Source of the DNA: Pseudooceanicola onchidii
GTDB taxonomy: Bacteria; Pseudomonadota; Alphaproteobacteria; Rhodobacterales; Rhodobacteraceae
Length of the DNA: 64,000 nucleotides
Assembly: GCF_004959925.1 (NCBI RefSeq)
Contig: NZ_SPUW01000002.1
Location: 186,001 to 250,000, forward strand
Reading direction: 5' to 3'
Made by a program: the position numbers and the translations under genes. The notes beneath the pieces were generated by a model. That model saw nothing but the letters and a program-made list of their open reading frames with translations. It ran no database searches and had not been told where the DNA came from. Shown in pieces: positions 48,745 through 57,929 of this stretch; within the stretch, counting starts at the first letter, position 1, and every line of letters begins with the position of its first letter.

Positions 48745-49577
48745 GCCAGCACCGCCTTTCGGGTTTCTTCGGTCACCTCGGGGCGCACACCGAACCAGCG
48801 TTCGAACCCGGGCACCGCCTGATGCAGCAACATGCCAAGGCCGTCGACGGTCGTGCAGCCCACCTGGGACGCGGTCTTGAGGAGTTCGGTCTGCAAAGGC
48901 GTATAGACGATGTCGGTGACCAGGTGATCCGGCGACAGCGCCGCGAGGTCGAGCAGAAGGGGATCCTTGCCCGCCATCCCGAGGGACGTCGTGTTGACCA
49001 CGGTCAGGCAGTCGGTGATCTGCGCGGCGGCATCCGCCCAGTCGACCACGGTTACGGCAGGACCAAAGGTGGTCGCCAGATCCTTTGCCCGGGTGCGGGT
49101 GCGGTTGGTCAGCCGGATCTCGGGGACGCCAGCGTCGAGCAGCGCGACGATGATCGCGCGGGCCGCGCCGCCGGCGCCAAGGACCAGCGCGGGCGCAGAG
49201 GCGGGCTGCCAGTCCGGCGCATCCTGATGGAGGTTCGAGATAAATCCATACGCATCGGTATTGTCTGCATGGATCACGCCATCGTCTTGAAACGTCACGG
49301 TATTTGCGGCGCCGATCCGCCGAGCGGTATCTGTCACGACATCGGCAATTTTCAGAACCTGTTCCTTGTGGGGCAGGGTGACGTTCGCGCCGACGAACCC
49401 CATCCGGGCCATGGTGCGCAGGACGGTTTCGAAATCTTCGGGCTCGACATGCGCGGGAACGTAGTGGCCCGGCAGGTCATGCTGGGTCAGCCAATGCCGG
49501 AACAGGTGCGGCGACCGGGAATGGGCGGCGGGGCAGCCGATGACGGCGGCCAGGGGGATGCGGGGCAGGGCGGTCAC
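48741..49577 (-). CDS. aroE: Shikimate dehydrogenase
   Basis: A 278-residue NADP-dependent enzyme reducing 3-dehydroshikimate. Seen: substrate-binding [11 protein letters not shown], catalytic Lys in [15 protein letters not shown]-binding [17 protein letters not shown] and a C-terminal [15 protein letters not shown]. The start is GTG at 49577 within GTGA, overlapping the maf stop. Confidence 0.96.
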
Positions 49578-50170
49578 TGGTCGATCACTCCTCGATCGGC
49601 GAGGTATGTCAGAAGGGGAAGATATGGCAGGCCGAGGACCGAAAAATAATCTCCGTCGATCCGTGCAAAAAGCCGCGCCCCTTCGGCTTCGACCATGTAG
49701 CAGCCGACCGACTGGCCGACCGTAGGCCAGTTGCGGGCCAGATAGGCGTCGAAAAAGGCGTCGGACAGCGGGCGCATGGTCAGTCGCGCCTCGCCCACGA
49801 ACCGCCAGATCGGGCGGGCTTCGTGGAAGATGACGGCTGCTGAGTGGAGCTTGTGCGTCTTGCCGGAGAGCTGGCGAAGATGGTCGGCGGCCTCATCGCG
49901 GGTGGTCGCCTTGGACATCAACTGACCTTCAAGGTCGAGCACCTGGTCACAGCCCAGCACGAAATCCTCCGGGCATTTCTGACCCATGCGCTGTGCCTTG
50001 GCCTCGGCCAGGGCGTCGGCGATGTCGCGGGGACGGGTGCCTTCGGCCAGCAGTGATTGCTTGATCGTCTCTTCGTCGACCGGAGCGGTCCGCACGGTGA
50101 AGGGCACGTTGGCGCGGGTCAGAAGCTCGGCCCGGATGGCAGAGCCGGAGGCAAGGATCAGGTCCGGCAT
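49574..50170 (-). CDS. maf: Maf-family nucleotide pyrophosphatase
   Basis: A 198-residue Maf protein: [21 protein letters not shown] at the start, then [10 protein letters not shown] and [13 protein letters not shown]. Maf enzymes hydrolyse non-canonical or pyrimidine NTPs; the exact subfamily (dTTP/UTP versus m7GTP) cannot be judged by eye. It is the first gene left of the proposed origin: its ATG (50170-50168) shares a base with an exact DnaA box. Confidence 0.95.
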
Positions 50171-50178
50171 GTGGATAA
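50170..50178 (-). promoter_or_regulatory. DnaA box, exact
   Basis: TGTGGATAA on the plus strand is the reverse complement of the consensus TTATCCACA. It overlaps the first base of the maf start codon. Confidence 0.85.
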
Positions 50179-50192
50179 CTTCCGGGATTACG

Positions 50193-50207
50193 TTAGGAGT
50201 TTGTTAA
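50193..50207. promoter_or_regulatory. CtrA-like binding motif
   Basis: TTAG-N7-TTAA differs by one base from the CtrA consensus TTAA-N7-TTAA, and lies 15 bp from the exact DnaA box. In Caulobacter CtrA sites in the origin repress replication; whether CtrA acts here is unknown. Confidence 0.4.
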
Positions 50208-50467
50208 GGACTGTTTCTGTAAGATCCACAGACCGGAGACAAGGGGTGGGAAACCATCCCCGTTCTCCCGCGCCATCCCTGCATCCATCCCTCTGGGGGG
50301 AAGGATAACTTGGGTGGCGTGGATGACACCTGTCTTCCCCGCATCATCCCGAACTTGCCACAGAGATTATCCCAAGACCCATCTGGACCGGGATTAAGAC
50401 GCAAATCATTGTTTTGAATTGGTTTATTCTGAGGTCTTACACAGACCACGGGCAAGTTCACACATGG

Positions 50468-50476
50468 TCATCCACA
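50468..50476 (+). promoter_or_regulatory. DnaA box, one mismatch
   Basis: TCATCCACA differs from TTATCCACA at the second base. It begins the densest cluster of box-like sequences in the gap. Confidence 0.65.
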
Positions 50477-50515
50477 GGATGTGGCAGAATGTGGGCAAGA
50501 TTGTGGCGAAGCAGG

Positions 50516-50524
50516 TAATCCACA
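50516..50524 (+). promoter_or_regulatory. DnaA box, one mismatch, next to the AT-rich tract
   Basis: TAATCCACA differs from the consensus at the second base. It lies about 15 bp from the AT-rich stretch at 50539-50580, the expected arrangement of a box bordering an unwinding element. Confidence 0.65.
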
Positions 50525-50538
50525 GGTTTTGGCGTCCC

Positions 50539-50580
50539 TACAATATTCATCAATCTTTTCTTCTTTTATATTTATTATTA
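50539..50580. other. AT-rich tract, candidate DNA unwinding element
   Basis: About 42 bp composed almost entirely of A and T with pyrimidine-rich runs (CTTTTCTTCTTTTATATTTA), exceptional in this high-GC sequence, directly adjoining the DnaA-box cluster and ending at the hemJ ribosome-binding site. Confidence 0.65.
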
Positions 50581-50590
50581 GGGAGGCCCT

Positions 50591-51037
50591 ATGACTGACC
50601 TGCTCGCGTCCCTCTATCCCTGGACCAAGTCCCTGCACATCATGTCCGTGATTGCATGGATGGCGGGGCTGTTCTATCTGCCCAGGCTTTTCGTACACCA
50701 CGTGGAACAAGCGGATAACGCGCAGATGCGCGAAACGTTCCAGATGATGGAAAAAAAGCTGCTGAAGCTGATCATGAACCCGGCCAGCATCGCGACCTGG
50801 GTCTTCGGGCTGATGCTGGTGTTCACGCCCGGTATCGTCGATTGGGGCATGGTCTGGCCCTGGACGAAGGCGGTGGCGGTGATCGCGATGACCTGGTTCC
50901 ATCATTGGCTTGGCAAGCGTCGGAAGGACCTTGAGGCCGGTACGAACAGCGTGACCGGCCGACAGTACCGGATGATGAACGAAGTGCCGACGCTGCTGAT
51001 GGTCGTGATCGTGCTGTCGGTGGTGGTGAAGTTCTGA
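50591..51037 (+). CDS. hemJ: Protoporphyrinogen IX oxidase HemJ
   Basis: A 148-residue inner-membrane protein with four to five helices and conserved His residues ([25 protein letters not shown] and [14 protein letters not shown]). HemJ oxidises protoporphyrinogen IX to protoporphyrin IX in most alphaproteobacteria. GGGAGG precedes the ATG. It is the first gene to the right of the proposed origin. Confidence 0.95.
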
Positions 51038-53738: not shown

Positions 53739-55625
53739 GTGTTTCACGTGAAACATTCTGACGTCGATGTGGTGGTAATCGGGGGCGGGCACGCGGGATG
53801 CGAGGCGGCGGCAGCGTCCGCGCGCCTTGGCGCGCGGACGATTTTGGTTACGCTGAAGCGTGACGGGATTGGCGTGATGTCGTGCAATCCAGCCATCGGA
53901 GGACTTGGTAAAGGGCACCTTGTACGTGAGATAGATGCCTTGGATGGCGTGATGGGTCGCATTGCAGATCTTGCCGGGATCCAATTCCGCCTGCTGAACC
54001 GGCGCAAAGGGCCCGCAGTACAGGGGCCGCGTGCGCAAGCGGACAGAAAGATCTATCGCACCGAGATGCTTGCGGAACTTGAGGCGACACCCAACCTGCA
54101 AATCGTTGAGGGTGAGGTGGTCGATTTCCGTATGGACGGTGTTCGTGTGAGCGGCGTCGTGTTGGCGGATGGCGCGGCTATTGACGCGGGATCGGTTGTC
54201 TTGACGACCGGAACGTTCTTGCGTGGCGTAATCCATATAGGCGATCAAACGAAACCCGGCGGGCGCATGGGTGACAAACCCTCGGTCCGTCTGGCTGAGC
54301 GCATGGATAGTTTCGGGCTGAGAATGGGTCGGTTGAAAACCGGTACGCCGCCGCGGCTTGATGGACGCACGATCGACTGGTCGGTTTTGGAGCAACAGCC
54401 AGGGGACGCGGAGCCGGTGCTGTTTTCGTTCCTGTCCAAAACGGTTAGCGCCAAGCAGATCGCTTGCGGGATCACATATACCAACGAACGCACGCACGAG
54501 ATCATCCGGGAAAATCTTGGACGGTCCGCGATGTATAGCGGCAATATTGAGGGGGTGGGTCCGAGGTATTGCCCGTCTATCGAAGACAAGGTCGTGCGTT
54601 TCGCTGAAAAAACCTCGCACCAGATCTTCCTTGAGCCCGAGGGGGTGGATGATCACACGGTGTACCCCAACGGGATCTCAACCTCGCTTCCCGTTGATGT
54701 CCAGGAAGACTACGTGCATTCAGTTCGCGGATTGGAGAATTCGGTTATCCTTCAGCCTGGCTATGCGATTGAATATGACTACGTTGATCCTCGATCATTG
54801 AACCTGCAATTGGGTGTGAAATCCGTGCCCGGGCTGTTTCTGGCTGGGCAGATCAACGGAACCACTGGGTACGAAGAAGCTGCAGCGCAGGGGATGGTTG
54901 CCGGGCTGAACGCCGCGAAGTCGGCCATGGATCAGGATCCGGTCGAGTTCGGTCGTACGGACAGCTATATCGGCGTTATGGTCGACGATCTAACCTCTCG
55001 CGGTGTGACGGAACCTTACCGGATGTTCACATCCCGAGCGGAGTTTCGTTTGTCGTTGCGTGCGGATAATGCCGATCAACGGTTGACGCCCCTTGGTATG
55101 GAGATTGGCTGTATTCGCCCTGCGCGGCAGGCTGAGTTTCAAGCGAAGATGGAACAGTTGGGGTTTGGCAAGGACGTTCTGACTGCCAAGGCCTATACGC
55201 CGCAAGAACTCTCGGTCGCTGGCATCAAGGCCAGTAACGACGGTTCCAAGCGGACTCTGTTCGATGTTTTGTCATTTCCTGATGTGACAATGGCGGAAGT
55301 TCAGGCTTTGGAACCGGAAGTTTCCGCTCTGGCGCCTGAAATTCGTCAGCAGCTTGCAACCGATGCGCTGTATGCGAAATATATTGAGCGCCAGTTGCGG
55401 GACGTCGATGCGTTGAAGAAGGATGAACACGAAGCCATCCCTGACGATTTTGATTTCAATGCGCTGGTGGGTTTGTCGAATGAACTGAAAGCCAAGCTTG
55501 TTCAGTTCCGGCCGACGAACTTGGCTCAGGCTGGTCGCGTCGAAGGGATGACTCCGGCGGCGTTGACGTTGATCCTTGCTCGCATTCGAAAGGCCAAAAC
55601 GGATGCCAGAAGGCTGCAAGCTTGA
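53739..55625 (+). CDS. mnmG: tRNA uridine-5-carboxymethylaminomethyl modification enzyme MnmG
   Basis: A 628-residue FAD enzyme partner of MnmE. Seen: [21 protein letters not shown] (FAD Rossmann), [22 protein letters not shown], and the C-terminal domain ending [11 protein letters not shown]. The start is GTG at 53739, and codons 1-6 (MFHVKH) are encoded by an exact parS sequence overlapping the start. A GAGAGG lies just upstream. GC content at third positions is lower than in most genes of the window. Confidence 0.97.
53740..53755. promoter_or_regulatory. parS: parS centromere site 1
   Basis: TGTTTCACGTGAAACA matches the bacterial parS consensus at all 16 positions. It coincides with the mnmG start (encoding FHVKH) about 2.5 kb before parA. 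Confidence 0.95.
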
Positions 55626-56227
55626 TGGACATCTCGAGTGTTTCACGTGAAACAAATGATCGGCTGAAGACCTATCTGACGCTGCTTGAAAAGTGGTCGC
55701 CAAAGATAAATCTTGTTTCTGCGGCCACCCTTGCGTCCGCATGGGATCGTCATTTCGTCGATTCCGCACAGCTGGTCAGCTTGGCTGAGGTCAAAGACGC
55801 GCATTGGCTCGACATCGGCAGCGGAGGCGGCTTTCCCGGCATGGTGGTCGCCATCATCCTGGCCGAGAACGATCCTTCATCGCACGTGTCTTTGTTGGAA
55901 TCCGACCAGAGGAAATGCGTGTTTCTGCGGACCGTTGCCCGAGAGGTCGGCATAAAGGTCGACGTGATCAATGCGCGGATCGAAAGCGCGCCTCCGATCG
56001 GCGCGGATATCATCAGCGCGCGGGCTCTCTCATCGCTCTCGACCCTTCTAGGATTTGCGCAGCGTCATGGAAAAAACACGACGACGCTTCTTTTTCCGAA
56101 GGGGCGAAGCTGGAAAACCGAAATTGAGGATGCGCAGCGTGAATGGCGCTTCACTCACTCCGTTCATCCAAGTAACACCGATGCAGAGGCCGTCATACTG
56201 AGAATCGAGGAAATCGAGCATGTCTGA
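55625..56227 (+). CDS. rsmG: 16S rRNA (guanine527-N7)-methyltransferase RsmG
   Basis: A 200-residue SAM-dependent methyltransferase. Seen: LEKWSPKINLVSAATLASAWDRHFVDSAQL and SAM-binding WLDIGSGGGFPGMVVAI. The ATG at 55625 overlaps the mnmG stop by one base; a TTG at 55622 is a lesser alternative. Codons 6-10 (VSRET) are encoded by the second parS site. Confidence 0.96.
   Translation: MDISSVSRETNDRLKTYLTLLEKWSPKINLVSAATLASAWDRHFVDSAQLVSLAEVKDAHWLDIGSGGGFPGMVVAIILAENDPSSHVSLLESDQRKCVFLRTVAREVGIKVDVINARIESAPPIGADIISARALSSLSTLLGFAQRHGKNTTTLLFPKGRSWKTEIEDAQREWRFTHSVHPSNTDAEAVILRIEEIEHV
55639..55654. promoter_or_regulatory. parS: parS centromere site 2
   Basis: A second exact TGTTTCACGTGAAACA, inside the rsmG coding region 14 bp after its ATG, about 570 bp before parA. 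The site keeps its sequence although it encodes a different peptide frame (SVSRETN) than site 1. Confidence 0.95.
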
Positions 56228-57029
56228 TCTGTTGACCGTCCATGGTCCCAAGATTGTCGCGATCGCAAACCAGAAAGGTGGGGTGGGGAAGACCACGACG
56301 ACCATTAATCTTGCTGCGGCGCTGGCTGAAATGGGCCACAACGTTCTCATCATCGATCTTGATCCGCAGGGCAACGCGTCGACCGGACTGGGTATTGAAA
56401 CGGACGCCCGGGAAAACACGACATACGAATTGTTGCTGGACGACGCGGCATTGGAAGACGTGATCCTAAAGACCGAGGTTGAAGGCCTTTCGATCGTCCC
56501 GTCGACCGTCGATCTCAGTTCGGCCGACATCGAACTGATCGCCAATGAAAAGCGCAGCTTTCTTCTGCGCGACGCACTCCGCCAGCCCGCGATGGAGCGC
56601 TACGAGTTCGACTACGTCCTGATCGATTGTCCGCCCTCGCTCAACCTTCTGACTGTCAACGCCATGGTTGCGGCGCATTCCGTCCTCGTGCCGCTGCAAA
56701 GCGAATTCTTTGCGCTCGAGGGTCTTTCGCAGCTCATGCTGTCGATCCGGGAAATCCGCCAGTCGGCGAATTCCAAGCTCAGGATCGAAGGTGTGGTTCT
56801 GACGATGTACGACGCACGCAACAACCTGTCCCAACAGGTCGAGGCCGACGCGCGCGACAACCTCGGGGACATCGTTTTCACGACGAAGATCCCGCGCAAT
56901 GTTCGCGTTAGTGAGGCGCCCTCCTACGCGATGCCGGTTCTCACGTTCGATACCACGTCCAAGGGCGCACAGGCTTACCGGGCCCTGGCCCAGGAATTCA
57001 TCAAGAAAAACGAAGCTGCAGACGCGTAA
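56220..57029 (+). CDS. parA: Chromosome partitioning ATPase ParA
   Basis: A 269-residue deviant-Walker ATPase: KIVAIANQKGGVGKTTTTINLAAAL, then DLDPQGNASTGLGI and DYVLIDCPPSLNLLTVNAM. It drives ParB-parS origin segregation. It overlaps rsmG by 8 nt (ATGTCTGA). AGGGGAGG-type site before parB indicates the two are translated together. Confidence 0.98.
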   Translation: MSDLLTVHGPKIVAIANQKGGVGKTTTTINLAAALAEMGHNVLIIDLDPQGNASTGLGIETDARENTTYELLLDDAALEDVILKTEVEGLSIVPSTVDLSSADIELIANEKRSFLLRDALRQPAMERYEFDYVLIDCPPSLNLLTVNAMVAAHSVLVPLQSEFFALEGLSQLMLSIREIRQSANSKLRIEGVVLTMYDARNNLSQQVEADARDNLGDIVFTTKIPRNVRVSEAPSYAMPVLTFDTTSKGAQAYRALAQEFIKKNEAADA

Positions 57030-57041
57030 GGGGAGGATCAG

Positions 57042-57929
57042 ATGAGCAACAAACCAAAGAACCGGGGTCTTGGGCGTGGCCTGTCCGCATTGATGGCGGA
57101 TGTATCAAATGACCAGGTTGAGACCAGCGAAGCATCCGCCCCGCGTCGTGCCGACACGATCGTTCCGATTGAACAGGTTCGGCCGAACCCCGATCAGCCG
57201 CGTCGCACGTTTACGGAAGATCAGCTGAACGAACTTGCGCAGTCGATAAAGGAAAAGGGGATTATCCAGCCCCTGATCGTGCGCCAGGTCGGAGGCGACT
57301 ATGAAATCGTCGCCGGGGAACGTCGGTGGCGGGCTGCGCAGATCGCCAAGCTGCACGAAGTGCCGGTCATCCTTCGGGACTACAATGACACCGAAGTGCT
57401 CGAAGTTGCGATTATCGAGAACATTCAGCGGGCCGATCTTAACCCGGTCGAAGAAGCGGCCGGGTATCGCCAGTTGATGGACAAGTTCGGTCACACGCAG
57501 GAAAAGCTGGCCGAGGCTTTGGGCAAAAGCCGCAGCTACATCGCCAACCTTTTGCGTCTGTTGAACTTGCCCGAAGACGTGCAGGAGATGTTGAAGGCGG
57601 GCAAACTGACCGCGGGCCACGCACGCGCCTTGATCACGGCTGAAAATCCGTCGACCCTTGCGGCACGCGTCGTTGCCGGAGGCTTGTCCGTACGAGAGAC
57701 GGAGCGGCTGGCCAACGAGACGAAGTCAGACCCGAAACCGGCGAAACCATCCACGCCGCGGGAAAAGGACGCGGACACGAAAGCGCTGGAAGGCGACCTG
57801 TCGGCGGCTTTGAAAATGAAGGTCACCCTGTCACATGAACCCGGCACCGAAAGCGGAACGATGACGATCCGGTACCTGTCGCTGGATCAGCTCGACACGC
57901 TGTGCCGCATGCTCAGCGGGGAGCATTAG
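57042..57929 (+). CDS. parB: Chromosome partitioning protein ParB
   Basis: A 295-residue parS-binding CTP switch: RGLGRGLSALMADV at the start (ParA-interacting), IVPIEQVRPNPDQPRRTF, CTP-binding GERRWRAAQIAKL, the helix-turn-helix TQEKLAEALGKSRSYIANLLRLL, and a C-terminal dimerisation domain. It lies 12 nt after parA behind GGGGAGG. Both parS sites it should bind are within 4 kb. Its 3' end overlaps convergent ybaN by 17 nt. Confidence 0.98.
   Translation: MSNKPKNRGLGRGLSALMADVSNDQVETSEASAPRRADTIVPIEQVRPNPDQPRRTFTEDQLNELAQSIKEKGIIQPLIVRQVGGDYEIVAGERRWRAAQIAKLHEVPVILRDYNDTEVLEVAIIENIQRADLNPVEEAAGYRQLMDKFGHTQEKLAEALGKSRSYIANLLRLLNLPEDVQEMLKAGKLTAGHARALITAENPSTLAARVVAGGLSVRETERLANETKSDPKPAKPSTPREKDADTKALEGDLSAALKMKVTLSHEPGTESGTMTIRYLSLDQLDTLCRMLSGEH

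What the first reader, a model, noticed from the sequence alone, without database searches (positions are those of the whole stretch)
50170..50590. Chromosomal origin of replication between maf and hemJ
The gap has an exact DnaA box (50170-50178), two one-mismatch boxes (50468-50476, 50516-50524) and several two-mismatch boxes within 60 bp, then a 42-bp almost pure AT tract. Flanking genes diverge and parAB-parS are close. It is not next to dnaA, in keeping with alphaproteobacterial origins near hem genes, although here the neighbour is hemJ instead of Caulobacter hemE.
Basis: partly seen in the sequence, partly recalled or inferred. Interest (0 to 1): 0.8.

Follow-up and report, generated by a model that had tools for sequence, protein, structure and literature searches.

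The report
Chromosome replication origin beside maf gene
The 420-base gap between the maf and hemJ genes is very probably where this marine bacterium begins to copy its chromosome; it is an ordinary example of an origin position already reported for its bacterial family.

Summary
The maf-hemJ gap carries one exact, two one-mismatch and five two-mismatch DnaA boxes, plus the most AT-rich 42-mer of the window (36 of 42, so not "almost pure"). It is the densest box cluster in about 1.1 Mb of this genome that was scanned. parS occurs at just two places in the genome, about 3 and 5 kb away. Divergent maf-gap-hemJ recurs in 22 of 22 genus genomes and 79 of 80 named loci; genus gaps hold 23 exact boxes against 0.06 in shuffles. 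A conserved core (box, usually 13-14 nt, CTAC, CAW repeats, T-rich tract) resembles the DnaA-box/DnaA-trio unwinding element, though this window fails the published trio rule.

In 10 of 12 other genomes of the class, the best box cluster lies between maf and hemE. Here COG1806 was not found and hemE is 438 kb away, so maf and hemJ abut the origin.

Against: GC skew does not flip here; KOPS polarity flips within 4 kb here but up to 76 kb away in relatives. Maf-adjacent oriC in Rhodobacteraceae is in print. Origin supported; novelty low.

The parts
50170..50590 (.). proposed chromosomal origin (oriC): gap between maf and hemJ
   Evidence: DnaA-box cluster, AT tract, same arrangement in 22 of 22 genus genomes (own included) and 79 of 80 named loci
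50170..50178 (-). exact DnaA box overlapping the maf start codon
   Evidence: 20 of 22 genus gaps have a box with at most one mismatch within 6 bases of this end of the gap, the other two (L084, L091) 17-18 bases in
50468..50476 (+). DnaA box, one mismatch (TCATCCACA)
50516..50524 (+). DnaA box, one mismatch (TAATCCACA); its ATCCAC is invariant in the 22 aligned genus gaps
50222..50230 (+). two-mismatch DnaA box (AGATCCACA)
50318..50326 (-). two-mismatch DnaA box (TCATCCACG)
50367..50375 (+). two-mismatch DnaA box (TTATCCCAA)
50490..50510 (-). two two-mismatch DnaA boxes (starting 50490 and 50502)
50538..50555 (+). trio-like core: CTAC then a CATCAA stretch, starting 13 nt after the box at 50516
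   Evidence: two-part pattern occurs once in the genome, here; a looser form is in 62 of 88 distinct gaps against at most 1 in dinucleotide shuffles
50539..50580 (.). AT-rich tract, likely DNA unwinding element
   Evidence: 36 of 42 A/T, highest in the window
49574..50170 (-). maf (Maf-like protein)
   Evidence: PF02545, E 6.6e-43
50591..51037 (+). hemJ (UPF0093)
   Evidence: PF03653, E 5.6e-60
53740..53755 (.). parS, exact, at the start of mnmG
55639..55654 (.). parS, exact, at the start of rsmG
56220..57029 (+). parA
   Evidence: AAA_31 and related ParA-type models
57042..57929 (+). parB
   Evidence: ParB_N, HTH_ParB, ParB_C

Best explanation
The maf-hemJ gap is the chromosomal origin, oriC. 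DnaA binds the strong box at 50170 and the box group at 50468-50524; from the box at 50516 a DnaA filament spreads rightward onto the trio-like tract (CTAC and CAW units, from 50538) and melts the AT-rich stretch 50539-50580, where helicase is loaded for bidirectional replication. ParB on the two parS sites about 3 and 5 kb away then segregates the new origin. Shown by computation: boxes, AT tract, conservation, parS, synteny. Inferred: DnaA binding, melting, helicase loading, firing.
For: Densest box cluster in the window (12 against 4) and among 78 own-genome sources of about 1.1 Mb, partly overlapping, including 1.5 kb around each of the genome's 17 exact boxes (next best 9). Same gap in 22 of 22 genus genomes, own included, with 23 exact and 43 one-mismatch boxes against shuffle means of 0.055 and 1.9, and in 79 of 80 named loci; the exception, L108, holds only 206 bases before hemJ. 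In six relatives, 120-274 kb around hemJ, the best cluster is at the gap in five; in G003 the fetch boundary cut the gap in two and its halves tie at 5 with a place 46 kb left. parS with at most one mismatch occurs at two places in the genome, both near the gap. KOPS in the window: 10 of 11 reverse up to 46801, 3 of 3 forward from 49371. In 10 of 12 class genomes the best box cluster of the fetched 8.4 kb lies between maf and hemE, though its score is only 4-7 in four of them. PMC4793288 passages state that oriC next to maf is conserved in Rhodobacteraceae.
Against: GC skew is mostly positive on both sides and does not change sign at the gap. The gap as KOPS switch fits 20 of 26 octamers here (best switch, 3.8-1.2 kb left of hemJ, 22 of 26). 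In relatives the best switch is left of the gap and fits better: G006 18 against 17 of 23, G016 12 against 9 of 16, G002 29 against 21 of 36, G003 31 against 24 of 38, G021 60 against 40 of 67; G001 shows no switch (28 against 22 of 38). No gene flips were seen from -37 to +13 kb in these six. The published BUS rule is not met at the conserved box of this window. No exact CtrA, IHF or GANTC consensus in the gap. Exact boxes are not enriched genome-wide (17 against 22 for the control pattern). Draft genome; most of it was not scanned for box clusters.
Confidence: 0.93

Rival explanations
1. The gap is a DnaA-regulated divergent promoter or DnaA-titrating site for maf and hemJ, and the real origin lies elsewhere, for example some tens of kb to the left.
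For: Best KOPS switch points in five of six relatives lie 1-76 kb left of the gap; GC skew does not flip at the gap.
Against: No competing cluster in the fetched flanks: next best 4 in this window, 5 in G021's 274 kb against 16 at the gap, 6 in G001 against 14. The genome's two parS places flank the gap. A gap of similar length with a trio-like core is kept in 79 of 80 named loci, more than a promoter would need.
Confidence: 0.05
2. The boxes are a chance effect of an AT-rich intergenic stretch in a GC-rich genome.
For: Boxes with at most one mismatch are expected about four times in the window by chance.
Against: 200 shuffle sets of the 22 genus gaps give at most 1 exact box in total against 23 observed; the core motif is in 62 of 88 distinct gaps against at most 1 in 20 shuffle sets.
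Confidence: 0.01
3. A plasmid- or phage-derived origin inserted in the chromosome.
For: None found.
Against: Flanking genes keep order and orientation from -37 to +13 kb in six relatives, and a box cluster sits in the corresponding slot in 10 of 12 class genomes.
Confidence: 0.01

Closest known systems
Rhodobacteraceae oriC next to maf (Ketogulonicigenium vulgare Hbe602 and DoriC, as stated in PMC4793288; passages seen)
   Same: oriC directly beside maf, same family
   Different: The passages name maf only; hemJ as the other neighbour and the core motif come from the calls here
Caulobacter/Rickettsia origin between hemE and COG1806 (PMC1914354, passages seen)
   Same: Corresponding synteny slot: aroE and maf on one side, hem genes and rho on the other
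   Different: PF03618 (COG1806) not found in this genome, hemE 438 kb away, no exact CtrA or IHF consensus in the gap
BUS: DnaA-boxes plus DnaA-trios (PMC8287927: outline with abstract, passages, methods section 13)
   Same: Box, 13-nt spacer, first triplet CTA (3'-GAT-5' on the other strand), AT-rich tract
   Different: The triplets after CTA break the run of NAN trios in this window, so the published rule fails at this place

Membership tests
DnaA-dependent chromosomal oriC | cluster of DnaA boxes beyond chance | tested here: met
   score 12 against 4 in window; 22 genus gaps 23 exact against 0.055 in shuffles
DnaA-dependent chromosomal oriC | adjacent AT-rich unwinding element | tested here: met
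   36 of 42 A/T at 50539-50580, highest in window; melting itself not tested
DnaA-dependent chromosomal oriC | best such site in the genome | tested here: inconclusive
   best among 78 own sources, about 1.1 of 3.67 Mb; the rest not scanned
DnaA-dependent chromosomal oriC | strand asymmetry switches at the site | tested here: inconclusive
   KOPS switch within 4 kb here, up to 76 kb off in relatives; GC skew does not flip
DnaA-dependent chromosomal oriC | parS close by | tested here: met
   two places in the genome at up to one mismatch, both exact, about 3 and 5 kb away
DnaA-dependent chromosomal oriC | replication initiates here / autonomous replication | not testable with these tools
   needs marker frequency or cloning
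Rhodobacteraceae maf-adjacent oriC | DnaA-box gap directly beside maf | tested here: met
   22 of 22 genus genomes, 79 of 80 named loci; one of the 79 gaps has no box with at most one mismatch
Caulobacter/Rickettsia-type hemE-COG1806 origin | flanked by hemE and COG1806 | tested here: not met
   hemE at C2:674 kb; no PF03618 match in the genome, while the Caulobacter control rings
Caulobacter/Rickettsia-type hemE-COG1806 origin | CtrA sites and IHF site | tested here: not met
   no exact TTAA-N7-TTAA or WATCAR-N4-TTR in 50166-50600; looser forms not tested, consensus strings recalled
BUS (DnaA-box plus DnaA-trios) | DnaA box with at most 2 mismatches within 0-16 nt of the first trio | tested here: met
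   TAATCCACA ends at 50524, CTA begins at 50538, spacer 13
BUS (DnaA-box plus DnaA-trios) | at least three consecutive NAN trios | tested here: not met
   my single-box version of the rule finds no hit at this box in the window, only one at the two-mismatch box at 50318 on the other strand. It passes at the corresponding box in L079/L102, L116, L128 and L130 among the rows printed. Anywhere in the gap: 8 of 22 and 55 of 79, against 16% and 26% of shuffles

The most novel reading that the evidence does not exclude
Rhodobacteraceae origins use a diverged unwinding element: the first DnaA-trio (3'-GAT-5') is kept at a set distance from a conserved DnaA box (13-14 nt in 47 of the 62 distinct gaps where the core was found, 4 nt in 10), but the following triplets became CAW units, which in many members, this genome included, lose or shift the middle adenine said to define trios. 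If real, DnaA of this family reads single-stranded DNA differently, at an origin that also lost its COG1806 and hemE flanks and any exact CtrA consensus.
Probability: 0.3. Interest if true: 0.4.

Novelty: new member of a known kind. Interest (0 to 1): 0.2.

Why it matters
It gives a well-supported origin coordinate for a genome close to Pseudooceanicola. It offers a reason why these origins abut maf and hemJ instead of hemE: COG1806 was not found in this genome, and hemE and ferrochelatase lie elsewhere. It also gives a family-wide set of trio-like cores that could test the rule that DnaA-trios need a middle adenine.

Tried and rejected
GC skew as a locator: no sign change at the gap. KOPS polarity as a precise locator: good here, but off by up to 76 kb in relatives, so used only as a tens-of-kb indicator. 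The published BUS rule: not met at the conserved box of the window. CtrA, IHF and GANTC: no exact match in the gap. A second own-genome cluster at C1:1180105 (score 9; one exact and two one-mismatch boxes) lies beside a frame that looks like miaA by eye; not pursued. A first script left minus-strand loci unturned and its zero-length gaps were discarded; one search replaced it. Two weak second HemJ matches (L100, L101) were left out. Paper searches. Passages also seen but not leaned on: PMC10721633, PMC3794950, PMC9756655. Correction: an earlier count said 12 of 13 KOPS octamers reverse on the left; the listing shows 10 of 11.

Full report
What is there. Over the whole window 7 boxes with at most one mismatch are found against 4.1 expected (11 of 100 shuffles reach 7), so single boxes mean little. 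Three of the seven are in this gap, and its 420-bp box score is 12 against 4 for the next best place. The stretch 50539-50580 is 36 of 42 A/T, the richest 42-mer in the window.

Where it lies. The window is C2:186001-250000 of a 3.67-Mb draft in 8 contigs; dnaA is at C2:96.7 kb, about 139 kb from the gap. Of the named loci listed, the nearest by HemJ is Pseudooceanicola nitratireducens, 89% identical; the tool warns that very near records may be left out. The exact box occurs 17 times in the genome and the backwards control pattern 22 times, so exact boxes as such are not enriched. Among 78 own sources, about 1.1 Mb with some overlap and including 1.5 kb around each of the 17 exact boxes, the gap scores highest (12; next 9 at C1:1180105). 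parS TGTTTCACGTGAAACA with at most one mismatch occurs at two places in the genome, both exact, at window 53740 and 55639, in the mnmG-rsmG-parA-parB cluster.

Conservation. All 22 genomes of the genus (own included) have divergent maf-gap-hemJ. Their gaps hold 23 exact, 43 one-mismatch and 77 two-mismatch boxes against shuffle means of 0.055, 1.9 and 24.0. Of 80 named loci (the best 80 of 379 relatives), 79 have the same arrangement with gaps of 365-458 bp, counting the maf start codon as the script cut them. The 80th, L108, has only 206 bases before hemJ. One of the 79 gaps has no box with at most one mismatch. Some genus genomes and named loci hold the same gap: 101 gaps are 88 distinct sequences.

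The core. Near hemJ the genus alignment shows invariant ATCCAC, then CTAC (but CGAC in L091 and CAAC in L096), CAW units and a T-rich tract. A two-part pattern for it occurs once in the own genome, at this place, with no control hits. A looser form is in 62 of 88 distinct gaps, against 0 on the other strand, 0 reversed and at most 1 in 20 sets of dinucleotide shuffles. Spacers are mostly 13 (35 gaps), 14 (12) and 4 (10); 26 gaps miss it. A stricter form was in 31 of 79. These patterns were written after seeing the alignment, so the counts describe it rather than test it.

The unwinding element. The published BUS program asks for a DnaA box, a spacer of 0-16 nt and at least three NAN trios (PMC8287927, methods section 13); its abstract and passages give the 3'-GAT-5' consensus and a spacer peak of 10-13. 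In this window the box at 50516, the 13-nt spacer and the first CTA fit, but the next triplets break the run, and my single-box version of the rule finds no hit there. It does pass at the corresponding box in L079/L102 (P. nitratireducens), L116, L128 and L130 among the rows printed (22 genus rows and 30 of 79 named rows). Anywhere in the gap 8 of 22 genus and 55 of 79 named gaps pass, against 16% and 26% of mononucleotide shuffles and 2 of 22 and 14 of 79 reversed gaps. The genus result is therefore weak. In sequences printed for ten other genomes of the class, by eye, L282, L289, L291 and L292 show CTACTA on the hemE side of the cluster; the printed stretch missed the gap in L283 and L284. 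I read the Rhodobacteraceae core as a diverged relative of that element; this is inference.

Why hemJ and not hemE. In 28 class-level loci outside the family, 23 have a hemE match within 1.5 kb upstream of hemJ and none a maf match there (loci were returned for 30 of 52 matching genomes, own and one family member among the 30). For 12 of the 28, picked for contig room, I took 8 kb upstream. Ten show maf, a box cluster and hemE in that order, and in these ten the best 420-bp score of the stretch falls between maf and hemE; it is 4-7 in L281, L288, L289 and L292 and 9-16 in the other six. L286 and L287 have no maf match and their best scores (8 and 3) lie elsewhere. The frame between maf and the gap is PF03618 (COG1806) in the two scanned. 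PMC1914354 passages give hemE/COG1806 as the flanks in Caulobacter and Rickettsia, and say GC skew was insufficient to find the origin in several alphaproteobacteria. In the own genome PF03618 gives no match (three control genomes ring, Caulobacter among them), hemE is at C2:674 kb and ferrochelatase at C2:273.5 kb. So, if the hemE-COG1806 layout is ancestral as PMC1914354 argues, both inner flanks were lost or moved, leaving maf and hemJ as neighbours.

Strand asymmetry. GC skew is mostly weakly positive on both sides of the gap; it rises from about 0.04 to 0.16 over 4-kb windows just right of it but does not change sign. KOPS octamers GGGNAGGG (name recalled) are 965 forward and 199 reverse in the contigs as laid. 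In the window 10 of 11 left of 49371 are reverse and 3 of 3 from there on forward. Sampled stretches of C2 right of the gap and of C3 are mainly forward. C1 is mixed up to about 0.34 Mb, then forward, and turns to reverse between 1.48 and 1.60 Mb, a likely terminus; if C1 joins the left end of C2 reversed, the two arms are about equal (inference). In six relatives the best switch lies left of the gap, by 1-6 kb (G006), 12-15 (G016), 26-31 (G002), 37-40 (G003) and 75-76 (G021), with none in G001. The gap as switch fits 17 against 18 of 23, 9 against 12 of 16, 21 against 29 of 36, 24 against 31 of 38, 40 against 60 of 67 and, in G001, 22 against 28 of 38. Gene order and orientation from -37 to +13 kb show no flips in these six, with about 17 kb extra in G002 near -23 kb and one frame displaced in G006; the switch in G021 lies outside this block and that in G003 at its edge. 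No competing box cluster was found in those flanks: G021's gap scores 16 against 5 at best elsewhere in its fetched stretches. I conclude that KOPS polarity is a coarse locator near the origin; this remains the main unexplained point against.

What is known. PMC4793288 (passages) predicts the K. vulgare origin next to maf and says from DoriC that this is conserved in Rhodobacteraceae. PMC6699656 (passages) assigned oriC in 101 Rhodobacteraceae by Ori-Finder, with GC-disparity minimum and parAB proximity among its criteria, and could not do so for eight strains. PMC8116508 (passages) also suggests parAB as an anchor. The origin call is therefore expected; this is a new instance. I saw no paper naming hemJ as the flank or describing the CTAC-CAW core in the searches, but only listings and the named passages were seen, the library is partial and supplements were not read.

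Noticed in passing
G021:C1 about 3138-3157 kb (L204, L205): A dense run of forward KOPS octamers 57-75 kb left of the maf-hemJ gap, of opposite polarity to what that arm should have.
   Followed up: partly
G000:C1:1180105 (L009): A second DnaA-box cluster (one exact, two one-mismatch boxes within about 95 bp) beside a frame that looks like miaA by eye; possibly a DnaA-regulated or titrating site.
   Followed up: partly
window 53740-53755 and 55639-55654: Both parS sites lie inside gene starts (mnmG and rsmG), so parS is also coding sequence; the first is read as part of MFHVKH.
   Followed up: no
C2:674 kb and C2:273.5 kb: hemE and ferrochelatase sit far from the origin, unlike hemE in 23 of 28 class loci outside the family.
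   Followed up: partly
own genome: PF03618 (COG1806 kinase-pyrophosphorylase), which lies beside the origin slot in the two other class genomes scanned, gives no match.
   Followed up: yes
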